In this document: in pieces, positions 2 through 21,199 of the stretch | Layout of the letters: each line of letters starts with the position of its first letter | How positions within the stretch are numbered: position 1 is the first letter of the stretch | Virus record (IMG/VR): IMGVR_UViG_3300034121_002485 | Location: 1 to 21,199 of that record | Direction: 5' to 3' (one strand) | DNA length: 21,199 bases | Source of the DNA: a virus | Position numbers and translations under genes: made by a program | The notes under the pieces: model-generated | Told to the model about the DNA's origin: nothing | Databases searched by the model: none | The model's input: the letters and a program-made list of their open reading frames with translations, nothing else

Positions 2-3000
2 ACAGATGAATATGATAGACTTACTCAAGCTGTATCCTCTTCTTATTTAACAGCTGTTGCATCTACTACATCTATTACTATTCAAGGATTTATTGAGAGA
101 ATTAGAGACTCCTCTAATGATATTCAGTCAACGTCTATTCGTGATAATCTATTAAAACTGAATGATAACCTTGACAATATTATAGCTGTCACCAAGGCAT
201 TAGGCGCTACAACTGTATCTGCCAATGCCTTTGGAAATAGAATTAGTGATATTCTAGCAAATCCAAAAATCATGTCATACCTTGCAACCGTTAAGGCTAG
301 AATAGTTGCATATACTTCTCAAACAATTGCAAAAGGCTCTGCTATTAAGGCGCAAGCAGATAGGATTCAAGGTCTTACACCATTGCCTGACCAAGCTATA
401 TTAACTCAAGCCCTAATTCAATCAGAACTATCTAAGGTATCTCGTCAGCTCACTGCAAAGTTTATAGATAGCACAAATCTACTTGACTTAACCAACATAA
501 CTGGCTTACTTACTAAACCTATTGTTCCAAATCGAACTACTGGAATTAAATTTAGACTCATTAGCAAGGATCAGGTGAGCATAAAGATAACACAGTTTAA
601 TGATCAAGGCGTTCAGCTTGATGATAAGGGCGCGGCTGTTCAAGTAGATGAACTTATTGCTATTGAAAATAGTCCAGTTCTACAGCGGAAAACTATATTT
701 AAGGACAGGCTAGGCTTAGCCATTGAGGGTATAGCTCAATATGTAGAAGGCCAATCATCAAATCCACCACGAGAGGATTCAGACTATCGAGTCCTAAGCG
801 GTCTACTCTATAATGGTATTTCAGGAAATAGCTATCGAGGTCTTTATACAAAATTAGGTAAACCAATCAACCTCCTATTTACGCTTGAGGAACGCGGTCT
901 TACTGTCAACCCAAATGCGATAGATCCTATATTCAATGGAATAAAAGACGCGCCGACTAGTGTTAGGGAGGACGACGTAACCTACTATATTAATAATCAA
1001 GCTGCATACGAAAGCTTTTATGATAAGCTACCAGAAGAATATCCAAAGCGAATTAAAAGAGAGCGCGATGTGGTATATGCGGCCCAAATAGCACCAGCCT
1101 TAACCCGATTAAGACTATTGGCTCGTCGTGAGGCAGCTGACACTCTAAGAAAAGTATCGGATTCAGCACTAAAACTTGCAAGGCCAACTTCATATACCTC
1201 AGCTCCAGGCAGCCAAACCTTATCACAAGGTACATTCACTTATTCAACACTAGATACTGTTCTCTCTGACGATCTTCTTTACTATACTCGATCAAAGTCA
1301 GAGCTTGACACGCTAATTACGGATTGCGATTTTGAATTGGCTCGGCTTGATGTGCTAATCAAGGAAAACTCAATGGACGAGGCTATTATAAAGCAAAAGA
1401 TCCTGGCAATTCCATGCTTTAAAAAGGCCGGTGATGCAGCTGCTCTTGCAAATATTGAAGATTCTGCAAATGCTGCAGCAGGTCAACCAGATTGCGAAAA
1501 AAAGGCTCGTAAAAAGCTGGGTATTGATCCTTTATACTTACGTACCCTATCCGCTACCGACTCTTCTCTACCTGACCTAACATCGCAATGCTATTGGAAG
1601 GAATTTGCAAAGGCCCTAAACAAGGTATGTATTCTACCTTTTCCCGACATATCAGTTCCTGGTGCTAACCTAATTTTTAGGTATTGGCCAATTAACTGTA
1701 TACTACCAATACCGTTTGGGCTGGTTTTACTACCAATTCCACCAAGATGGAAGCCATTATTTGTTCTACCGACTCCGCTCGGTACACTAGTGTGTATGCT
1801 AACAATGCCGCTTGCACCAATTGGAATTCCGCTACCATCTCTGTACCTCTTCTTTTTTGCAATTGACGGCAATAAGTACCTAGCCTTTGCAACTAATCCA
1901 CCTTTGCTCTATGCGCCTATCCAAAATCTAAAATTTGGGTTTGAACAGGATAATTCAGCACTGTCTCTTAATCCATTAGGTCTTAATCCGCTAAATCCAT
2001 ATAAGGGTCAACCGATAAAGGGTTCGTTAACTGTTCCATTAGCAGTCTCTGCTCCAGTAGCTAAAGCTACTCGGCTTGCATCAATTGCTGCAATGGTTGC
2101 CGCTGGTGAAATTTCAATCTCTAACCTAGCTGGTGTTAAGCTGCCGGTTGATATAACCCTACCTGATCTACTTACTACTCTACTTAGTGAGACCGAGATG
2201 ATGCTTGGAATTGCAAACGCTCCGCCATCTAATGACTTTAAGCGGCAAATGACAGGCTTTAAAACTACCGTTAATCGTCAGCTTGATAAGCTTGGCGAAA
2301 TGCAGACAGGCGCAATTGTTTCAATAAAAGAGTCTCTATCCAAGGCCCGGGAGGCAGCTGAAGAGCAGGCATATGGTGAAAAGGATAATTCCAAGCGCCG
2401 AACTGAGCGCAAAAAGGCCAGAAATCTAAATATTACGTCTCTTCAGGACAAGATAGATGCTGCAATCAAGTCAGTCAATGACCATATTGATAATATCAAG
2501 TTTGGAACCATTCGATATCCAAAGGATCCAACTAAATTTAACCCGGAATTACCGTCGGCTCTTACTGCCATTTTTGATGTAATAGAGCTCGCTGCAATTG
2601 GCGATTTTAAAATAGACCCACGTGCAACTAGCCTAAATGCCCAATTAATAAACATACTTGGAATGATTGATGTCAAGAAGCTATCAAGCAAGACCCAATT
2701 TAATCTGGATGACAGTAAGGACCTAGCAGATTTTAAAGATGCCCTTAAGAAACTTGCAGGCCAGGCAGTAGGTTTCCTAAAAGGCAATAAATTTGACTCC
2801 AATACTTCAGCTGCAAAGAATAAAGAAGAGGCTCAGGCTATTGCTGACTCAGCCAAAACTGTACAGGATACTCTAAAAAAGGCTCTATCCCTAACTGCTA
2901 TTGCACTATCTGTACCAATCGGTCTAAATATCTTTGACTTGGCTAAAAAGTGTTGTGAAGTACAGGCTAAAAACATATTTACTGGTATACCATTACCTTT

Positions 3001-4360
3001 AACTCTTGCATTTACGCTAATCACCTCACTAATTGAGAGTCTAGTTGATGCAATTGATCCAAAGGCAATACTTAATTCAATTGGAATACCAGGTTTGCCT
3101 AATACACCATCTAATATTGTTAGCCTAAATACTGTTACCCAGGTCTTGGAAGGAATTCTTGATTCTCTGCCTAATGTGCCAATACCGGATCCAGCAGGCC
3201 TAACTGCTCTAGTTACTGCCCTAATCATACCAATCTTAAGTATTATCTCTTTTCCAAAAGCGCCAACCCCTATTCACCTACCATCTATTCCACTAATAAT
3301 TCCACTCGACCCAATCCTAAAGCCTCTAATTAAAGCCCTACTTGCCAAGCTAATTGAAGCAATATTTAGACTACTTGATCAAGCCTCTAATGTTCTAGCC
3401 AAAGCCACTGCAACTGAAACATCAACCCTGTCACAACAGAGTTCAACAACATCAGCTGCCAACCTAAATACTGCAACTGGCGGAGGAGTTTTTGGCGGAA
3501 ACTCCGAAGACAATATTAAATTTCTTAATGAGGTTTTTACTACTGCTTGTGGTGAAGGCATAACCGCATCCTTATCGCTTGAGTCTAGACTTACATCAAC
3601 TAGTCTAATTAACTCGGCCAAGACTGCTGAGCCTGCACAGGATACAATAGAGACAACTACCACTGCCTCATCAACTGTTGCTCTTACTGTGACTCTACCG
3701 GATGGAAAAGTCTTTAGGTTACCAAAGATTCCATTTATTTCGCTAGATCTAATGGGATACTTTCATCTACTTACTGGAGCAGACCTAATTGAGCTTGTCA
3801 GAGGCCTATTTAACATGCTATTTGATCAAATTATCAATCCGATTTCACAAATCATCTCAATTATCTCATTGATATCAACCTCAGCCAATACTCTAAGCTA
3901 TACTACAATTGAGGCAGCAATACCTCAAATATCAATAATCAAGCTTATTCTGTTGACAATTGATTCGTTGATTCCACCGGGCTTTAAGATCAGACCTGTT
4001 AATCTAGAGGCAATGAAGGTTATACTAGCCGTTGCAATTCCTGCGCTCGAGTTTGCGGAACCAGTTCTTAAGCAGATTGCATGGATTGGTAGCCTTGCCC
4101 TATGTGCAATAGGTATTGCACCACTATATAGCACAGTATCAATTGCTCGACTGTTTCATCCAATTATGAATCAGGATGATTTACCTCCTTGGGAAAGACT
4201 GACTCATAAAAACCCACTGTTTTCAATATTTCTAGATGAAATTGCATGGAGGGGTTCAATTTATTCAACTGGATCACTTATATTCCAGTCAAAGATGCCA
4301 GCGGTCCTACCATACACGCCGCTATTACCAATCGTTCATATATCGCCACATCTAGCCTAA
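2..4360 (+). CDS. Giant hydrophobic proline-rich protein, probable virion structural protein (5' partial)
   Basis: The frame is open from base 2 without a stop, so the gene begins before the window; at least 1452 residues remain. The ATG at 272 is internal, because the 90 codons before it have the same Ser/Thr/Asn/Ile-rich character. I do not recognise the family. What can be seen: a largely helical, charged first third; a Cys-containing, very hydrophobic proline-rich block at about residues 556-632 (nt 1669-1900); a charged Lys/Glu-rich helical stretch near residues 780-830; a second hydrophobic Pro/Ile/Leu block at about 1064-1130; a Thr/Ser/Gly-rich linker near 1135-1165; and a hydrophobic last 200 residues. 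No signal peptide or enzyme motif is visible. The size and segments that could enter membranes suggest a baseplate, tail or ejection protein, but this is a guess from composition. An AT-rich inverted repeat (TAATAAG / CTTATTA, 4358-4378) spans its stop codon. Confidence 0.7.
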   Translation, partial: TDEYDRLTQAVSSSYLTAVASTTSITIQGFIERIRDSSNDIQSTSIRDNLLKLNDNLDNIIAVTKALGATTVSANAFGNRISDILANPKIMSYLATVKARIVAYTSQTIAKGSAIKAQADRIQGLTPLPDQAILTQALIQSELSKVSRQLTAKFIDSTNLLDLTNITGLLTKPIVPNRTTGIKFRLISKDQVSIKITQFNDQGVQLDDKGAAVQVDELIAIENSPVLQRKTIFKDRLGLAIEGIAQYVEGQSSNPPREDSDYRVLSGLLYNGISGNSYRGLYTKLGKPINLLFTLEERGLTVNPNAIDPIFNGIKDAPTSVREDDVTYYINNQAAYESFYDKLPEEYPKRIKRERDVVYAAQIAPALTRLRLLARREAADTLRKVSDSALKLARPTSYTSAPGSQTLSQGTFTYSTLDTVLSDDLLYYTRSKSELDTLITDCDFELARLDVLIKENSMDEAIIKQKILAIPCFKKAGDAAALANIEDSANAAAGQPDCEKKARKKLGIDPLYLRTLSATDSSLPDLTSQCYWKEFAKALNKVCILPFPDISVPGANLIFRYWPINCILPIPFGLVLLPIPPRWKPLFVLPTPLGTLVCMLTMPLAPIGIPLPSLYLFFFAIDGNKYLAFATNPPLLYAPIQNLKFGFEQDNSALSLNPLGLNPLNPYKGQPIKGSLTVPLAVSAPVAKATRLASIAAMVAAGEISISNLAGVKLPVDITLPDLLTTLLSETEMMLGIANAPPSNDFKRQMTGFKTTVNRQLDKLGEMQTGAIVSIKESLSKAREAAEEQAYGEKDNSKRRTERKKARNLNITSLQDKIDAAIKSVNDHIDNIKFGTIRYPKDPTKFNPELPSALTAIFDVIELAAIGDFKIDPRATSLNAQLINILGMIDVKKLSSKTQFNLDDSKDLADFKDALKKLAGQAVGFLKGNKFDSNTSAAKNKEEAQAIADSAKTVQDTLKKALSLTAIALSVPIGLNIFDLAKKCCEVQAKNIFTGIPLPLTLAFTLITSLIESLVDAIDPKAILNSIGIPGLPNTPSNIVSLNTVTQVLEGILDSLPNVPIPDPAGLTALVTALIIPILSIISFPKAPTPIHLPSIPLIIPLDPILKPLIKALLAKLIEAIFRLLDQASNVLAKATATETSTLSQQSSTTSAANLNTATGGGVFGGNSEDNIKFLNEVFTTACGEGITASLSLESRLTSTSLINSAKTAEPAQDTIETTTTASSTVALTVTLPDGKVFRLPKIPFISLDLMGYFHLLTGADLIELVRGLFNMLFDQIINPISQIISIISLISTSANTLSYTTIEAAIPQISIIKLILLTIDSLIPPGFKIRPVNLEAMKVILAVAIPALEFAEPVLKQIAWIGSLALCAIGIAPLYSTVSIARLFHPIMNQDDLPPWERLTHKNPLFSIFLDEIAWRGSIYSTGSLIFQSKMPAVLPYTPLLPIVHISPHLA

Positions 4361-4430: not shown

Positions 4431-5612
4431 ATGCAAACCTTAAGCGTATCACCTGCAATTTTCGATTGGGCAAATCACGGCTCAACATTAAAGTATAATG
4501 ATCGAGTTTCAATGTCCGACTACGATAAAAAAGTTGGCGCCAAGATTCTATGTAAGGAATCTTATGCTCAAGAGTTATACAATCTCTATACGGGTCACGA
4601 TGGAGCCCTAACGGCAACCGCAAAGGACTTTTCACAAGGTCAATTATGTACAGTTCTTGCAAAGTCAATTGATTTTGAGAACAAGGTAATTATTACTGAA
4701 GAGAAATTCTCAAAATCAACAATCTTTGTGCCTTTCCGGGAATTTACCGAAGACCCAGCCCTTCTCATTCATAACGAGGACCTGCACGAGTTTAGAGTAA
4801 CCATCACAAAGGCAGACGACGGAGACTATTATGGTTCCGAGAAGAAGTGCGCAGCTCTAACCTATAGAGATAACCTAAACGACTTTATGAAGACTGACAA
4901 ATGGTTCTACGTAAAGGTTGTGAGTCTAGTTAAAGGTGGATACCTTGCTCTATACAAAGGTACGGTTAAGTGCTTTTTGCCAGGTTCACATGCTGCAGCT
5001 AACGTAATCAGAGACTTCAATGATTACCTCAATACCGAGATTCCGGTAATGATTGAGAATTTTGATCAAGCCAACGATCTGTTTATTGTTTCCTATAAGA
5101 AATACATTAAGCACACTCTGCCGCAAAAGGTTTATGAACTTGAGTTCGGTAAGGAATATGTAGGTACTCTAACCAATAACCCATACGATTTCGGTATATT
5201 CGTTGAGTTTCAAAACTATTACACTGGCCTTCTCCATAAGACCGAATTCCAAAACTATGCTGAGTATTGCAAGGGTAAGAAATCCGGCGATCAAATTTCA
5301 GTGTACATCAAGGATATTACAGTTAAGAAAGGCGAACCAAGAATTGTTTTGACTGACTCACTCGATAAGGTTGATCAGGACAAGATCACATGGCAGTCAA
5401 TCAAGACCCGAATTGAGGGTCATGTCCTAGACTTTACACTCGACAAAGAAGATTTCCATGTTGAGATTGAATTGCCTGATACCGGTAATATATTTAGAAC
5501 GGATGTGAGCCATCTTAAAGGCCGTATCCGAATTCCTAATGAAGGACAGGTGAAAATCGTGAGAGTCGATACAATCCGCAAAAATATTAAATTAGATTTC
5601 CTAAACGTCTAG
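4431..5612 (+). CDS. Ribosomal protein S1-like multi-OB RNA-binding protein
   Basis: This 393-residue protein is probably an RNA-binding protein built from S1/OB modules. The clearest one is at about residues 239-310: GKEYVGTLTN, then a DFGIFVEF core, then TGLLHKTEF, then GDQISVYIKDI and a closing RIVLTD, which is the classic S1 order (start strand, G(I/V)FV, GLLH, G-D-V-V strand, I-LS). A weaker module is at about 159-225 (GGYLALYKGTVKCFLPGS), and two degenerate OB-like stretches lie near 70-140 and 320-392. Bacterial S1 has four to six repeats over about 550 residues, so this is shorter. The start at 4431 has an A-rich leader and no Shine-Dalgarno; ATG 4512 is a weaker alternative. It is followed by the nucleotide reductase genes. 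Likely roles are helping translation of phage mRNA or acting as an RNA chaperone; neither is shown by the sequence. Confidence 0.8.
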   Translation: MQTLSVSPAIFDWANHGSTLKYNDRVSMSDYDKKVGAKILCKESYAQELYNLYTGHDGALTATAKDFSQGQLCTVLAKSIDFENKVIITEEKFSKSTIFVPFREFTEDPALLIHNEDLHEFRVTITKADDGDYYGSEKKCAALTYRDNLNDFMKTDKWFYVKVVSLVKGGYLALYKGTVKCFLPGSHAAANVIRDFNDYLNTEIPVMIENFDQANDLFIVSYKKYIKHTLPQKVYELEFGKEYVGTLTNNPYDFGIFVEFQNYYTGLLHKTEFQNYAEYCKGKKSGDQISVYIKDITVKKGEPRIVLTDSLDKVDQDKITWQSIKTRIEGHVLDFTLDKEDFHVEIELPDTGNIFRTDVSHLKGRIRIPNEGQVKIVRVDTIRKNIKLDFLNV

Positions 5613-17805: not shown

Positions 17806-19197
17806 ATGATAGTAAGCACAGAATTTAACAGTGATGATTCAACACTAGTCATCTCGTATTACGATGAAGACGGTAATATCGCATTTATCAAAAAACCAAT
17901 CCAGCAGCAGGATCTCTTTAACTGGGTACTAACTCCTACCCCAACTGAGTTTCGTAATTGGGATAATCGATTCCTTAAAAAGGCTCCAAACCGTTGGCTA
18001 AGCCGATTTCGCCTTGAAGAGCTTACTCAGTCCAGGCTTAGTCAAGACGAGCTTGACCGAATCTACTCTGATCTTAGCCCAAAGAAGTATTATCTTGATA
18101 TTGAGATCCAGCTTACATCAAGTGATTTCCCAGATCCAGCCAAGGCTCTAATGCCAGTTAACCTCATAACCTTTGTGAATGAGGATAATGTGTGTTTTGT
18201 AATGTCTACCATGAAGAACCTAGAAGCACATGTTGTTTCTCAAATGGAATCTGAGGTTAACGATTACTTTAAAGCCCATGGTCAGGCATTCACAATCAAG
18301 TATCTTTTCTTTGAAAAGGAAGAGGACCTAATGAAGACCTTCTTTCACAAAGTCTTGCCAAAAATCTCCTTCCTAACTGGCTGGAACGTTATTGGCTTTG
18401 ACTGGATCTACTTGATTAATCGATGCAAGCGTCTAAATATTGAGCCAATGGAAACAATGCCTTGTCAAAAGACGATTGGCCAATCCAAAATGCCAATTCA
18501 CATGGGACTGCTTGACTACATGGAAGTCTTTATGAACACCAAGCCGTATAAAGTGGTTGAGAACTACAAGCTTGATTACATTGCCAATCTTGTGCTAGGT
18601 ACACGAAAGCTGCACCAAGCCTATGCAACCATGATGGAAGCCCAGCAAGATATTGAAAACTTTGTCAAGTACAATATCATTGATACAATCTTAGTTAAAC
18701 TCATTGAGGATAAACTCGGCCTGCTTGATGTTGCATTTGCAATCTCTAAGTTTGCGCGAGTTGATGTATCTAAAGTATTTAGTGCAGTATTCATTACTGA
18801 GACTCTAATGTGTCGTGAGTTTCTTGAGCGTGGCCGCTTTATGGCAAGCGATCGTCGTGAAATTGAGAAAGAGGCAACCTACGATGGTGCATACGTTGCA
18901 AAGCCAGAACCTGGTTATTACAAATACGTTTCATGCTTTGACTTTGCATCAATGTATCCAAATATTCAAATTCAGTTTAATATTTCGCCAGATGCGTATA
19001 TTGGAAAAATTAAGCCCGATACGCAAAAGACTCCCGAAACTATTATAACCAAGAACGATACAATATTTACCAAGCAATTTGATTCGGCTGCTCGAACTAT
19101 CTTAACTCGTCTGTATAATGGTCGAGTTGATACAAAGAATGAAATGAAGCGTCTTGAAGAGCAGCTAGATGGTGAAAAAGCTAATAAAACTAATTAA
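17806..19197 (+). CDS. 43A: Family B DNA polymerase, N-terminal part only (split gp43A)
   Basis: The 463 residues cover the N-terminal domain, the 3'-5' exonuclease and the first part of the palm of a T4 gp43-type replicative polymerase (about 900 residues in T4). Exo I is D98-I-E100 (YYLDIEIQL), Exo II N194 and D199 (GWNVIGFDW), Exo III Y289 and D293 (YNIIDTIL), so proofreading should be active. Motif A is present with catalytic D379 (CFDFASMYPNIQ). The frame then stops after a Lys/Glu-rich helix (TKNEMKRLEEQL), where the fingers begin, before motif B (KxxxNSxYG) and motif C (DTDS). Neither of the two genes that follow, in any frame, restores them. Split gp43A/gp43B polymerases are known in some T4-related Aeromonas phages, so the rest is expected elsewhere in the genome. 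A truncated, dead copy is the alternative, but the reading frame shows no decay. Confidence 0.88.
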   Translation: MIVSTEFNSDDSTLVISYYDEDGNIAFIKKPIQQQDLFNWVLTPTPTEFRNWDNRFLKKAPNRWLSRFRLEELTQSRLSQDELDRIYSDLSPKKYYLDIEIQLTSSDFPDPAKALMPVNLITFVNEDNVCFVMSTMKNLEAHVVSQMESEVNDYFKAHGQAFTIKYLFFEKEEDLMKTFFHKVLPKISFLTGWNVIGFDWIYLINRCKRLNIEPMETMPCQKTIGQSKMPIHMGLLDYMEVFMNTKPYKVVENYKLDYIANLVLGTRKLHQAYATMMEAQQDIENFVKYNIIDTILVKLIEDKLGLLDVAFAISKFARVDVSKVFSAVFITETLMCREFLERGRFMASDRREIEKEATYDGAYVAKPEPGYYKYVSCFDFASMYPNIQIQFNISPDAYIGKIKPDTQKTPETIITKNDTIFTKQFDSAARTILTRLYNGRVDTKNEMKRLEEQLDGEKANKTN

Positions 19198-19204
19198 GAA
19201 ACTT

Positions 19205-19813
19205 ATGCAAGGTTACGATATCGATACTCTAGTATCAATAAAGAACAGTTTTCAAGGAAATAACTTCCAGTGGGTTAAAACCAATGACCGTGCTAAACTT
19301 GGCCAGGTTGTTAGAGTTAATGATGTTATCCCTAGCGGCAGAGGATTTATTGCTCAACTGTCTGATGGTTCCAGGATTTCTACTGATCAATTAACCAGCA
19401 ATCTAATGATGCTAATGGATGATCAACCGGCTCTATCAATGGCTGAAATTATGTCAATCAATATTCTACCTAGCCTGTCTGACGAAATGGATCTTGCGCC
19501 AGGCTTACCTGACGAATTTAAGGATGATATTGCTCGACCTGCGCAAGTTAGAGCTGAACCCACAACAAAATCGGCTCAGTCTGACCCAGCTGATCTATTT
19601 GGCATGTTTTCTCTTGAACAGACTGACTTACCACTATCTGTTTCAATTAAGTTGCCTGCTCGTAATCTGCTAAAGATGATGTACTCAAACTCCCAGAACA
19701 AGGAAGAGTTCCTAAATAAGTTAGCTGTCTATATAAATAGTAATGTAACAACCGACTCTATCAAGTCTTCAATGAAGAAGTCACTAGACCCGGATAAAAA
19801 GAAGAAAGTTTAA
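19205..19813 (+). CDS. Unknown protein at the polymerase split point
   Basis: From ATG 19205 the protein has 202 residues. ATG 19169 in the same frame would add MVKKLIKLIKKL and overlap the polymerase by 29 nt. I prefer 19205 because it lies 8 nt after the polymerase stop with the A-rich leader usual here. No family is recognised. An N-terminal beta-rich part (GQVVRVNDVIPSGRGFIAQLSDGSRIS) looks like a small SH3/OB-type barrel. A Pro/Ala/Asp-rich middle (about residues 100-130) looks disordered, and a Lys-rich helix closes the protein (DPDKKKKV). It has no homing-endonuclease motif (GIY-YIG, LAGLIDADG or HNH) and no polymerase motif B or C. The stop overlaps the next start as TAATG. It could be a polymerase accessory or linking factor, from position only. 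Confidence 0.7.
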   Translation: MQGYDIDTLVSIKNSFQGNNFQWVKTNDRAKLGQVVRVNDVIPSGRGFIAQLSDGSRISTDQLTSNLMMLMDDQPALSMAEIMSINILPSLSDEMDLAPGLPDEFKDDIARPAQVRAEPTTKSAQSDPADLFGMFSLEQTDLPLSVSIKLPARNLLKMMYSNSQNKEEFLNKLAVYINSNVTTDSIKSSMKKSLDPDKKKKV

Positions 19814-20397
19814 TGCTACCCCAGTCCAAGATAACTCGCACAGTTTCCCCAATCTTAAATGGTGAATTTGAGGTAATTTCTCTAACTAGAGATTCGGACC
19901 GGGCTGATCGATTATCGAGTAATGCAAACTATATTGCAATTATTCCATTTGAGAAAACATCAGATGACCGAATCAAGTCAATTTATGGGGTACGCTTTGA
20001 GAATCATGTAACCGGCCAAGCTGATACAACCCTAGTTATTGATGCAGTAGATTCATCTCGTGATCAAACTACTTATGATACCGTTTGTCGAGCCCTAATT
20101 GAAGAGGCCGGTATTAATCTAGAGGAGGCTGGTATCAATGAAGACGATATTTTTTACCTGGGTAACATTAGTACCTGCATTCCAGTTAATGCCAAGTTTA
20201 AATGTTATGCAGTTGACCTGAGCCGGATTGCAAATCCTGACTCCCCAATTGAGTTTGCTAGAACTCTATCCAAGTCCAAATTTGAAAAGGACTCATCTGA
20301 GATTGTTAAGCTAGGGTTTCACCAAGTTGTTAACGGCGACTTCTCGGATGCAACTATTCTGGCCAGTGCCTTTTTATTAGTTTCCTATTTCAACTGA
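19813..20397 (+). CDS. Nudix-like protein with an altered Nudix box
   Basis: Nudix proteins cleave nucleoside diphosphates linked to other groups. In this 194-residue protein a beta strand (NYIAIIPFE) and a strand-loop (YGVRFENH) precede a box-like helix, Q85-x7-R93-A-L-I-E97-E98-A-G-I101. The consensus is G-x5-E-x7-R-E-U-x-E-E-x-G-U, so the first Glu is Gln and the Glu after Arg is Ala, while the metal-binding E-E pair remains. The strand FYLGNIS and CYAVDL follow as in the fold. The segment EEAGIN is repeated at once (20101-20121 and 20122-20142), a 21-nt tandem duplication extending this helix. Activity may be lost or changed. The start overlaps the stop of the preceding gene, and uvsX follows after 53 nt. 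A non-enzymatic Nudix-fold regulator is possible. Confidence 0.6.
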   Translation: MLPQSKITRTVSPILNGEFEVISLTRDSDRADRLSSNANYIAIIPFEKTSDDRIKSIYGVRFENHVTGQADTTLVIDAVDSSRDQTTYDTVCRALIEEAGINLEEAGINEDDIFYLGNISTCIPVNAKFKCYAVDLSRIANPDSPIEFARTLSKSKFEKDSSEIVKLGFHQVVNGDFSDATILASAFLLVSYFN

Positions 20398-20450: not shown

Positions 20451-21199
20451 ATGGCAAAAACGCTAGATGCATTTGCAAAATTCAATGACATTCTCGAGAA
20501 AAAGGTAAAATCCAAGATCGAGATTCGTGGCTTCTCCGATATTGAGGAGTATATTCCAACTGGTAACTACCTCCTAAATGCCCAAATGTCGGGTTCCTTA
20601 TTTGGAGGCTATCCAAACACTCGTAGTATTGGTATTGCCGGTGATTCCGGAGCCGGTAAAACTTTTCTATGCCTAAATGCAGTAAGGGAATTACAGGCAA
20701 AGGGCTACATGGTAATCTATATTGATACAGAAGGTGCAATTGACTCCTCTGACTATGTTAAATTTGGAGTTGACCTTACTAAGCTTAAATATTTACGAAT
20801 GGGTCTCATTAGCGAGGTCAAATTTTTTGTAAATGATCTGCTTGAGACAATTAAAGAGAATCCAGGCCTTAAGATTGCAATGTTTGTTGATTCAGTCGGC
20901 ATGCTTGATACAGACAAGAGTAAATCTGACATGGAAAAGGGCAAAAATGCCGGCGATATGGGTCTTCGGGCCAAGGAAATGCGTGCACTCTTTAAGAGTT
21001 TTACGCTTGACCTCTCTAATTACAAAATTCCATTTATTTTCACAAACCACACATATGCTTCAATGGACCAGTACACCCCAAAAGGCATGTCTGGTGGTGG
21101 TGGACCGGAATTCTCAGCATCAATCATTTTAATGCTGAGCAAGGGTACTCTACGTGATGAGGCCAAGACTACAACCGGTATTATCGTCAGGTCCAAGAC
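20451..21199 (+). CDS. uvsX: UvsX RecA-like recombinase (3' partial)
   Basis: UvsX forms filaments on single-stranded DNA, displacing gp32, and drives strand invasion for recombination-dependent replication. The first 249 residues are present and the gene runs off the window end. Walker A is GDSGAGKT at residues 64-71, more canonical than the T4 form (from memory, GPSKSFKS). The catalytic glutamate is E94 in YIDTEGAID. Walker B is at MFVDSVGML. The DNA-binding L1/L2 region follows as NHTYASMDQYTPKGMSGGGGPEF, matching the T4 UvsX arrangement (NHTYE...GGGTGP). The start at 20451 follows a 53-nt gap with no clear promoter or Shine-Dalgarno. With gp32, RNase H and polymerase on the same strand, it completes a T4-like replication and recombination set. 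Confidence 0.95.
   Translation, partial: MAKTLDAFAKFNDILEKKVKSKIEIRGFSDIEEYIPTGNYLLNAQMSGSLFGGYPNTRSIGIAGDSGAGKTFLCLNAVRELQAKGYMVIYIDTEGAIDSSDYVKFGVDLTKLKYLRMGLISEVKFFVNDLLETIKENPGLKIAMFVDSVGMLDTDKSKSDMEKGKNAGDMGLRAKEMRALFKSFTLDLSNYKIPFIFTNHTYASMDQYTPKGMSGGGGPEFSASIILMLSKGTLRDEAKTTTGIIVRSK

What the first reader, a model, noticed from the sequence alone, without database searches (positions are those of the whole stretch)
17806..20397. DNA polymerase gp43 is split after motif A, before the fingers
The frame has intact Exo I-III and motif A (D379) but ends at residue 463 without motif B (KxxxNSxYG), motif C (DTDS) or the thumb. The next two genes are not the missing half. Split gp43A/gp43B is known in T4-related Aeromonas phages, and a two-ORF polymerase in Rhodothermus phage RM378. 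Here two unrelated genes sit straight after the break, and uvsX follows, so gp43B would have to be at a distance. This would be an unusual replisome arrangement.
Basis: partly seen in the sequence, partly recalled or inferred. Interest (0 to 1): 0.78.

Follow-up and report, generated by a model that had tools for sequence, protein, structure and literature searches.

The report
Two-gene phage DNA polymerase, halves apart
This virus encodes only the front half of its DNA-copying enzyme here; in its relatives the back half is an intact gene about 38-54 kb away, so the enzyme's active site must be assembled from two separate proteins, a stable arrangement shared by a whole lineage of large phages.

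Summary
The 463-aa frame at 17806-19197 is the N-terminal half of a T4-type family B DNA polymerase (gp43A). All 46 close relatives found stop (TAA) at the equivalent codon, 457-468 aa. The missing half (gp43B: motif B, motif C, thumb) was found in the long related records. It lies downstream on the same strand, 38-49 kb away in the window's clade and 4-54 kb away across the wider lineage. Huge phages (LR7565xx, Lak) also carry split halves, mostly >100 kb apart on opposite strands. Permuted ~270-kb records place gp43B at the same distance, and longer genomes hold exactly two complementary PolB pieces and no PolA or PolIII. The break is at the tip of the fingers, not before them: gp43A keeps the first fingers helix (R440/K444, matching RB69 R482/K486) and gp43B begins 21-36 residues before motif B. 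Dividing palm and fingers between chains implies obligate non-covalent assembly (inferred, not shown). Split gp43 with the same breakpoint is known from Aeromonas and Acinetobacter T4-like phages, halves 0-3 kb apart. New here: the dispersal, and a deep, fully split clade. Verdict: new variant of a known kind.

The parts
17806..19197 (+). gp43A: N-terminal domain, 3'-5' exonuclease, palm part 1 (motif A) and first fingers helix of a T4-type family B DNA polymerase, 463 aa
18097..18105 (+). Exo I (D98, E100), proofreading site
   Evidence: invariant columns; coordinates
18385..18402 (+). Exo II (N194, D199)
   Evidence: D199 invariant and N194 invariant or nearly invariant
18670..18684 (+). Exo III (Y289, D293)
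   Evidence: invariant columns
18940..18942 (+). Motif A catalytic aspartate D379 (equivalent of RB69 D411)
   Evidence: invariant; aligned to RB69
19087..19191 (+). First fingers helix (residues 428-462) with R440 and K444 (equivalents of dNTP-contacting RB69 R482 and K486)
   Evidence: helix in AF2 model; R440 invariant, K444 invariant or nearly invariant; alignment to RB69
19195..19197 (+). TAA stop that defines the break, at the fingers tip
   Evidence: stop at the homologous position in all 46 relatives and in distant ones
19205..19813 (+). Conserved gene of unknown function after gp43A, 202 aa from the conserved start (the mechanical ORF starts at 19169); not gp43B
   Evidence: no Pfam or PHROG match; syntenic in relatives
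19813..20397 (+). Second conserved gene after gp43A, 194 aa, possibly Nudix-like by eye (..CRALIEEAG..); not gp43B
   Evidence: no Pfam or PHROG match; syntenic in relatives
20451..21199 (+). uvsX recombinase, cut by the end of the record
   Evidence: phrog_97, E 1.7e-49

Best explanation
The gene is gp43A of an obligately two-subunit family B replicative polymerase. gp43A brings the N-terminal and proofreading exonuclease domains, the motif A strand of the palm and the first fingers helix. A separately encoded gp43B, expected roughly 40-50 kb downstream on the same strand, brings the second fingers helix (motif B), the rest of the palm (motif C, DTDS) and the thumb. The two fold together without covalent joining: the antiparallel helices of the fingers and the palm sheet are completed between chains, so metal-binding aspartates (D379 on A, DTDS on B) and dNTP contacts (R440/K444 on A, K20/N24 on B) come together only in the heterodimer. 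Shown: both genes exist in the lineage, are complementary, intact, under purifying selection and co-inherited. Inferred: physical assembly, activity, and that the window's own phage carries gp43B.
For: gp43B is present in the long records of the window's clade. Pfam PF00136 is covered once and without a hole: A covers about 16-145, B about 133/144-450. phrog_262 is likewise divided at about column 497. No other polymerase was found in seven long genomes. The ~270-kb records are cut at different points yet hold A and B 43.1-43.3 kb apart in each, as circular permutations of one genome would, so B's position is not an assembly artefact. A dN/dS 0.03, B 0.10 where dS is not saturated. A and B distance matrices correlate at r = 0.99 (expected also from shared genome descent). 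AF2 of A alone gives a confident N-terminal and exonuclease part, but the motif A palm segment 351-393 at pLDDT about 34; B alone is uncertain at 12-50 and 152-202; both match RB69 gp43. No intein fragment fits at the ends and no Rfam intron was found. Precedent: split 43A/43B of Aeromonas phage 25 co-purify and have polymerase activity (Petrov et al. 2010 as cited in PMC2988022).
Against: No complex was modelled or assayed, so assembly is inferred. The window's own gp43B has not been seen because the record is a fragment. Low confidence in the single-chain models may partly reflect shallow alignments. The dN/dS values come from few pairs. In a few long records of the 51%-identity group and in L213 and L230 (G034, G035, G038, G049) no gp43B was found; those records may be fragments.
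Confidence: 0.9

Rival explanations
1. The halves are joined after translation by a split intein, giving one covalent polymerase.
For: Split inteins do break gp43B a second time at motif C (DTD|S) in LR756500 and in the Lak phages, with clear C-terminal intein motifs (VYDIEVDDTHTFFANDILAHN|S) on the last piece. A PolB split intein is reported in phage MIJ3 (PMC6892783).
Against: At the fingers-tip break gp43A ends a few residues after the fingers helix without an intein N-part, and gp43B starts 21-36 residues before motif B, inside helix sequence. There is no room for an intein.
Confidence: 0.02
2. Sequencing or assembly error, or a decaying pseudogene.
For: None found beyond the truncated look of the frame.
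Against: The same stop in 46 relatives from many samples; gp43B equally uniform across about 90 loci; low dN/dS.
Confidence: 0.01
3. gp43A works on its own as a proofreading or repair exonuclease while replication relies on something else, such as the host polymerase.
For: gp43A has a complete exonuclease site and its N-terminal and exonuclease parts are modelled with confidence alone.
Against: Motif A and the fingers residues are as conserved as the exonuclease site; gp43B is kept with motifs B and C; no other phage polymerase was found.
Confidence: 0.05
4. The two halves are joined at the RNA level, by trans-splicing or ribosome bypassing.
For: Group I introns in gene 43 are known in Aeromonas phage 25 (PMC2993671).
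Against: The halves are 4-54 kb apart, and on opposite strands >100 kb apart in LR756504, LR745206 and LR756502; gp43B has its own start; no Rfam intron at either end.
Confidence: 0.02

Closest known systems
Split gp43A/gp43B of T4-like Aeromonas phages 25 and 44RR and Acinetobacter phage Acj9
   Same: Same family B polymerase, same break (phrog_262 about 496-498), no intein at the break; for phage 25 the halves are reported to co-purify and polymerise (PMC2988022).
   Different: Halves are adjacent or within about 3 kb and these phages lie inside otherwise unsplit Straboviridae. In the window's lineage the halves are 4-54 kb apart and no unsplit member was seen.
Two-ORF polymerase of Rhodothermus phage RM378
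   Same: Dispersed two-gene family B polymerase, about 57 kb apart on one strand.
   Different: The break is at the exonuclease/polymerase boundary (phrog_262 336|379) and the polymerase domain is in one chain; in the window's lineage the polymerase active site itself is divided.
Lak megaphages, LR7565xx huge phages, Sphingomonas phage PAU, Chryseobacterium phage MA9V-2
   Same: Same clade and same break.
   Different: Halves 2-4 kb apart in PAU and MA9V-2, >100 kb apart on opposite strands in several megaphages; gp43B is broken once more by a split intein in Lak and LR756500.
Pseudomonas jumbo phage MIJ3 split PolB (PMC6892783)
   Same: PolB in two ORFs.
   Different: Reported there as a split intein with an HNH ORF in between, thus rejoined covalently.
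RB69/T4 gp43
   Same: Fold, domain order and motifs.
   Different: One chain; roughly 35 residues at the RB69 fingers tip have no counterpart.

Membership tests
T4-type family B DNA polymerase (gp43) | Exo I-III residues | tested here: met
   D98/E100, N194/D199, Y289/D293
T4-type family B DNA polymerase (gp43) | Motif A | tested here: met
   D379 invariant
T4-type family B DNA polymerase (gp43) | Motifs B and C and thumb | tested here: met
   Not in the window; met by gp43B of relatives
T4-type family B DNA polymerase (gp43) | Single polypeptide chain | tested here: not met
   All relatives found are split
Split gp43A/gp43B (Aeromonas/Acinetobacter kind) | Break at the fingers tip, phrog_262 about 497 | tested here: met
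Split gp43A/gp43B (Aeromonas/Acinetobacter kind) | Halves next to each other or with a few genes between | tested here: not met
   37.7-49.1 kb in the window's clade
Split gp43A/gp43B (Aeromonas/Acinetobacter kind) | Halves bind and are active together | not testable with these tools
   known for phage 25 from the literature only (PMC2988022)
RM378-type two-ORF polymerase | Break between exonuclease and polymerase domains | tested here: not met
   RM378 336|379 against about 497 here
Split-intein PolB (MIJ3, Lak gp43B) | Intein fragments at the break | tested here: not met
   absent at the gp43A end and gp43B start; present at motif C in Lak and LR756500

The most novel reading that the evidence does not exclude
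The separation is functional: gp43A (with gp32, uvsX and a DnaB-like helicase) and gp43B (with uvsW and primase, next to head genes) are expressed from different modules, so that polymerase assembly is timed or limited by the supply of one half, or halves can be exchanged at the fork.
Probability: 0.15. Interest if true: 0.8.

Novelty: new variant of a known kind. Interest (0 to 1): 0.6.

Why it matters
Replicative polymerases are almost always one catalytic chain. A large phage lineage, including Lak megaphages, appears to have kept a polymerase whose active site is divided between two distant genes. It gives a natural split point in a family B polymerase (useful for building split enzymes), makes the question of how and why catalytic cores fragment testable, and corrects annotation: each half alone is often labelled simply 'DNA polymerase' or left hypothetical.

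Tried and rejected
Frameshift or sequencing error: rejected by 46 relatives with the same stop. gp43B in the next two genes: rejected, no polymerase match. Intein or intron at the break: none. A second complete polymerase: none of family A, B or III in seven long genomes. One single origin for all split gp43 genes: rejected under the model used (AU p 2.5e-44), though one gain with later fusions cannot be excluded and long branches (PAU, MA9V-2, L230, V6Aob) make some placements unsure. Modelling A with B together was not possible (only single chains accepted, two jobs). A first tree run failed because motif-based trimming dropped the outgroup rows and was repeated. Fetching fixed coordinates of Aeromonas phages 25 and 44RR missed gene 43 at first; the right stretches were taken later. 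Literature searches for 'gp43A', 'gp43B', 'split DNA polymerase', Lak, PAU, RM378 found no report of the dispersed arrangement in this lineage, but the library holds only open-licence papers.

Full report
OBSERVATION. The frame 17806-19197 encodes 463 aa. It matches the PolB exonuclease domain and the first 143 of 453 positions of PF00136, phrog_262 (T4-type gp43) up to position 493 of 856, and nearly all of phrog_2062. Exo I-III and motif A are present and conserved. The window is the complete IMG/VR record (21,199 nt) and contains no other PolB piece.

NOT AN ERROR. A scan of viral contigs with the protein gave 46 loci 69-88% identical. Every one ends in TAA at 457-468 aa, counted for those complete at the start. 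A wider scan with a profile of relatives returned 80 loci, and all gp43A frames inspected there that are not cut by a contig end stop at the same place.

THE MISSING HALF. phrog_262 was run on 29 records, 17 phage records and 25 further viral records. The long records of the window's clade have a second frame covering about columns 495-839. The distance from the end of gp43A to the start of gp43B is 37.7-49.1 kb in that clade, 36-54 kb in somewhat more distant relatives, and 4-17 kb in others; in these viral records B is always downstream on the same strand. Records G010, G011, G012 and G020 (270-271 kb) start at different points but give the same distance, 43.1-43.3 kb, as circular permutations of one complete genome would. 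In seven long genomes PF00136 finds exactly two pieces, meeting at about column 140, and PolA and PolIII models find nothing. In four records (G034, G035, G038, G049) no gp43B was found; they may be fragments. The window lacks gp43B because it is a 21-kb fragment.

WHERE THE BREAK IS. Aligned with RB69 gp43, gp43A runs to about residue 496 and a little beyond, and includes the first fingers helix with R440 and K444, the equivalents of RB69 R482 and K486 (the roles of these RB69 residues are from general knowledge). gp43B starts 21-36 residues before motif B across about 90 loci, leaving aside frames whose mechanical start lies further upstream or that are cut by a contig end, and aligns to RB69 from about 536-556. 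The break is therefore at the tip of the fingers, between motif A and motif B, and the polymerase active site is divided: motif A on A, motif C (DTDS) on B, with dNTP contacts on both.

STRUCTURE. AF2 of gp43A (32 sequences) has mean pLDDT 83.7, with the motif A palm segment 351-393 near 34 and a single helix at 428-462. gp43B (22 sequences) has mean 70.4, with low stretches at 12-50 and 152-202. Both find RB69 gp43 as the best solved structure. This is consistent with palm and fingers that need the partner, but shallow alignments could also lower confidence; a complex could not be modelled here.

SELECTION AND DESCENT. dN/dS is about 0.03 for A and 0.10 for B where dS is not saturated. A and B distances over 16 genomes correlate at r = 0.99, as expected for co-inherited parts. 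In a tree of the A region, 37 split rows (the window's clade, other viral contigs, LR7565xx, Lak, PAU, MA9V-2) form one clade at 100/100 with no unsplit member, while split Aeromonas 25/44RR and Acj9 sit within unsplit Straboviridae. Holding all split rows together is rejected (p-AU 2.5e-44). The same site seems to have been broken more than once, though one gain with later fusions is not excluded and some long branches are unsure.

NEIGHBOURHOODS. gp43A lies with an NTP pyrophosphohydrolase-like gene, two conserved genes of unknown function and uvsX, followed in relative L038 by a DnaB-like helicase and SbcCD-like genes. gp43B in L152 lies downstream of a uvsW-like helicase and directly before a DNA primase that overlaps its end, next to head-closure and portal genes. 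No homing endonuclease was identified among the scanned neighbours in this clade, and no Rfam intron was found.

COMPARISON WITH THE KNOWN. Split 43A/43B is known from Aeromonas phages, where the halves of phage 25 co-purify and polymerise (PMC2988022), and is annotated in Acj9. PHROGs holds separate families for the two halves (phrog_2062, phrog_1918). RM378 is dispersed but cut at the exonuclease/polymerase boundary. What is added here is a deep, wholly split clade with halves usually far apart, and the demonstration that the window belongs to it.

A SECOND BREAK. In LR756500 and in Lak phages gp43B is interrupted again at motif C by what reads as a split intein, so their polymerase would need three genes: one non-covalent join and one protein-splicing join.

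LIMITS. No assay, no complex model; the window's own gp43B is unseen; the literature searched is open-licence only.

Noticed in passing
L127 1284-4684; L132, L133, L134 (LR756500 and Lak-A2, Lak-C1, Lak-B2): gp43B is broken a second time at motif C (DTD|S) by what looks like a split intein, giving a three-gene polymerase; in Lak-C1 the first piece ends right after DTDS.
   Followed up: partly
L318 598-1341 and matching weak hits in many records: A separate protein of about 250 aa with a DEDD-type 3'-5' exonuclease look, distinct from gp43A, about 20 kb upstream of it.
   Followed up: partly
Lak-B2 (MK250021) 510670-522827 against Lak-A2 (MK250019): In Lak-B2 the gp43B pieces lie about 7 kb upstream of gp43A on the same strand; in Lak-A2 they are about 220 kb away on the opposite strand, so gene order is not stable among Lak phages.
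   Followed up: no
window 19205-19813 and 19813-20397: Two genes without family match that stay next to gp43A across the clade; the second has a Nudix-like stretch by eye.
   Followed up: partly
window 4431-5612: Protein with an S1 RNA-binding domain (PF00575) upstream of the ribonucleotide reductase genes.
   Followed up: no
window 272-4360: A 1362-aa frame with no PHROG match and long hydrophobic, proline-rich stretches.
   Followed up: no
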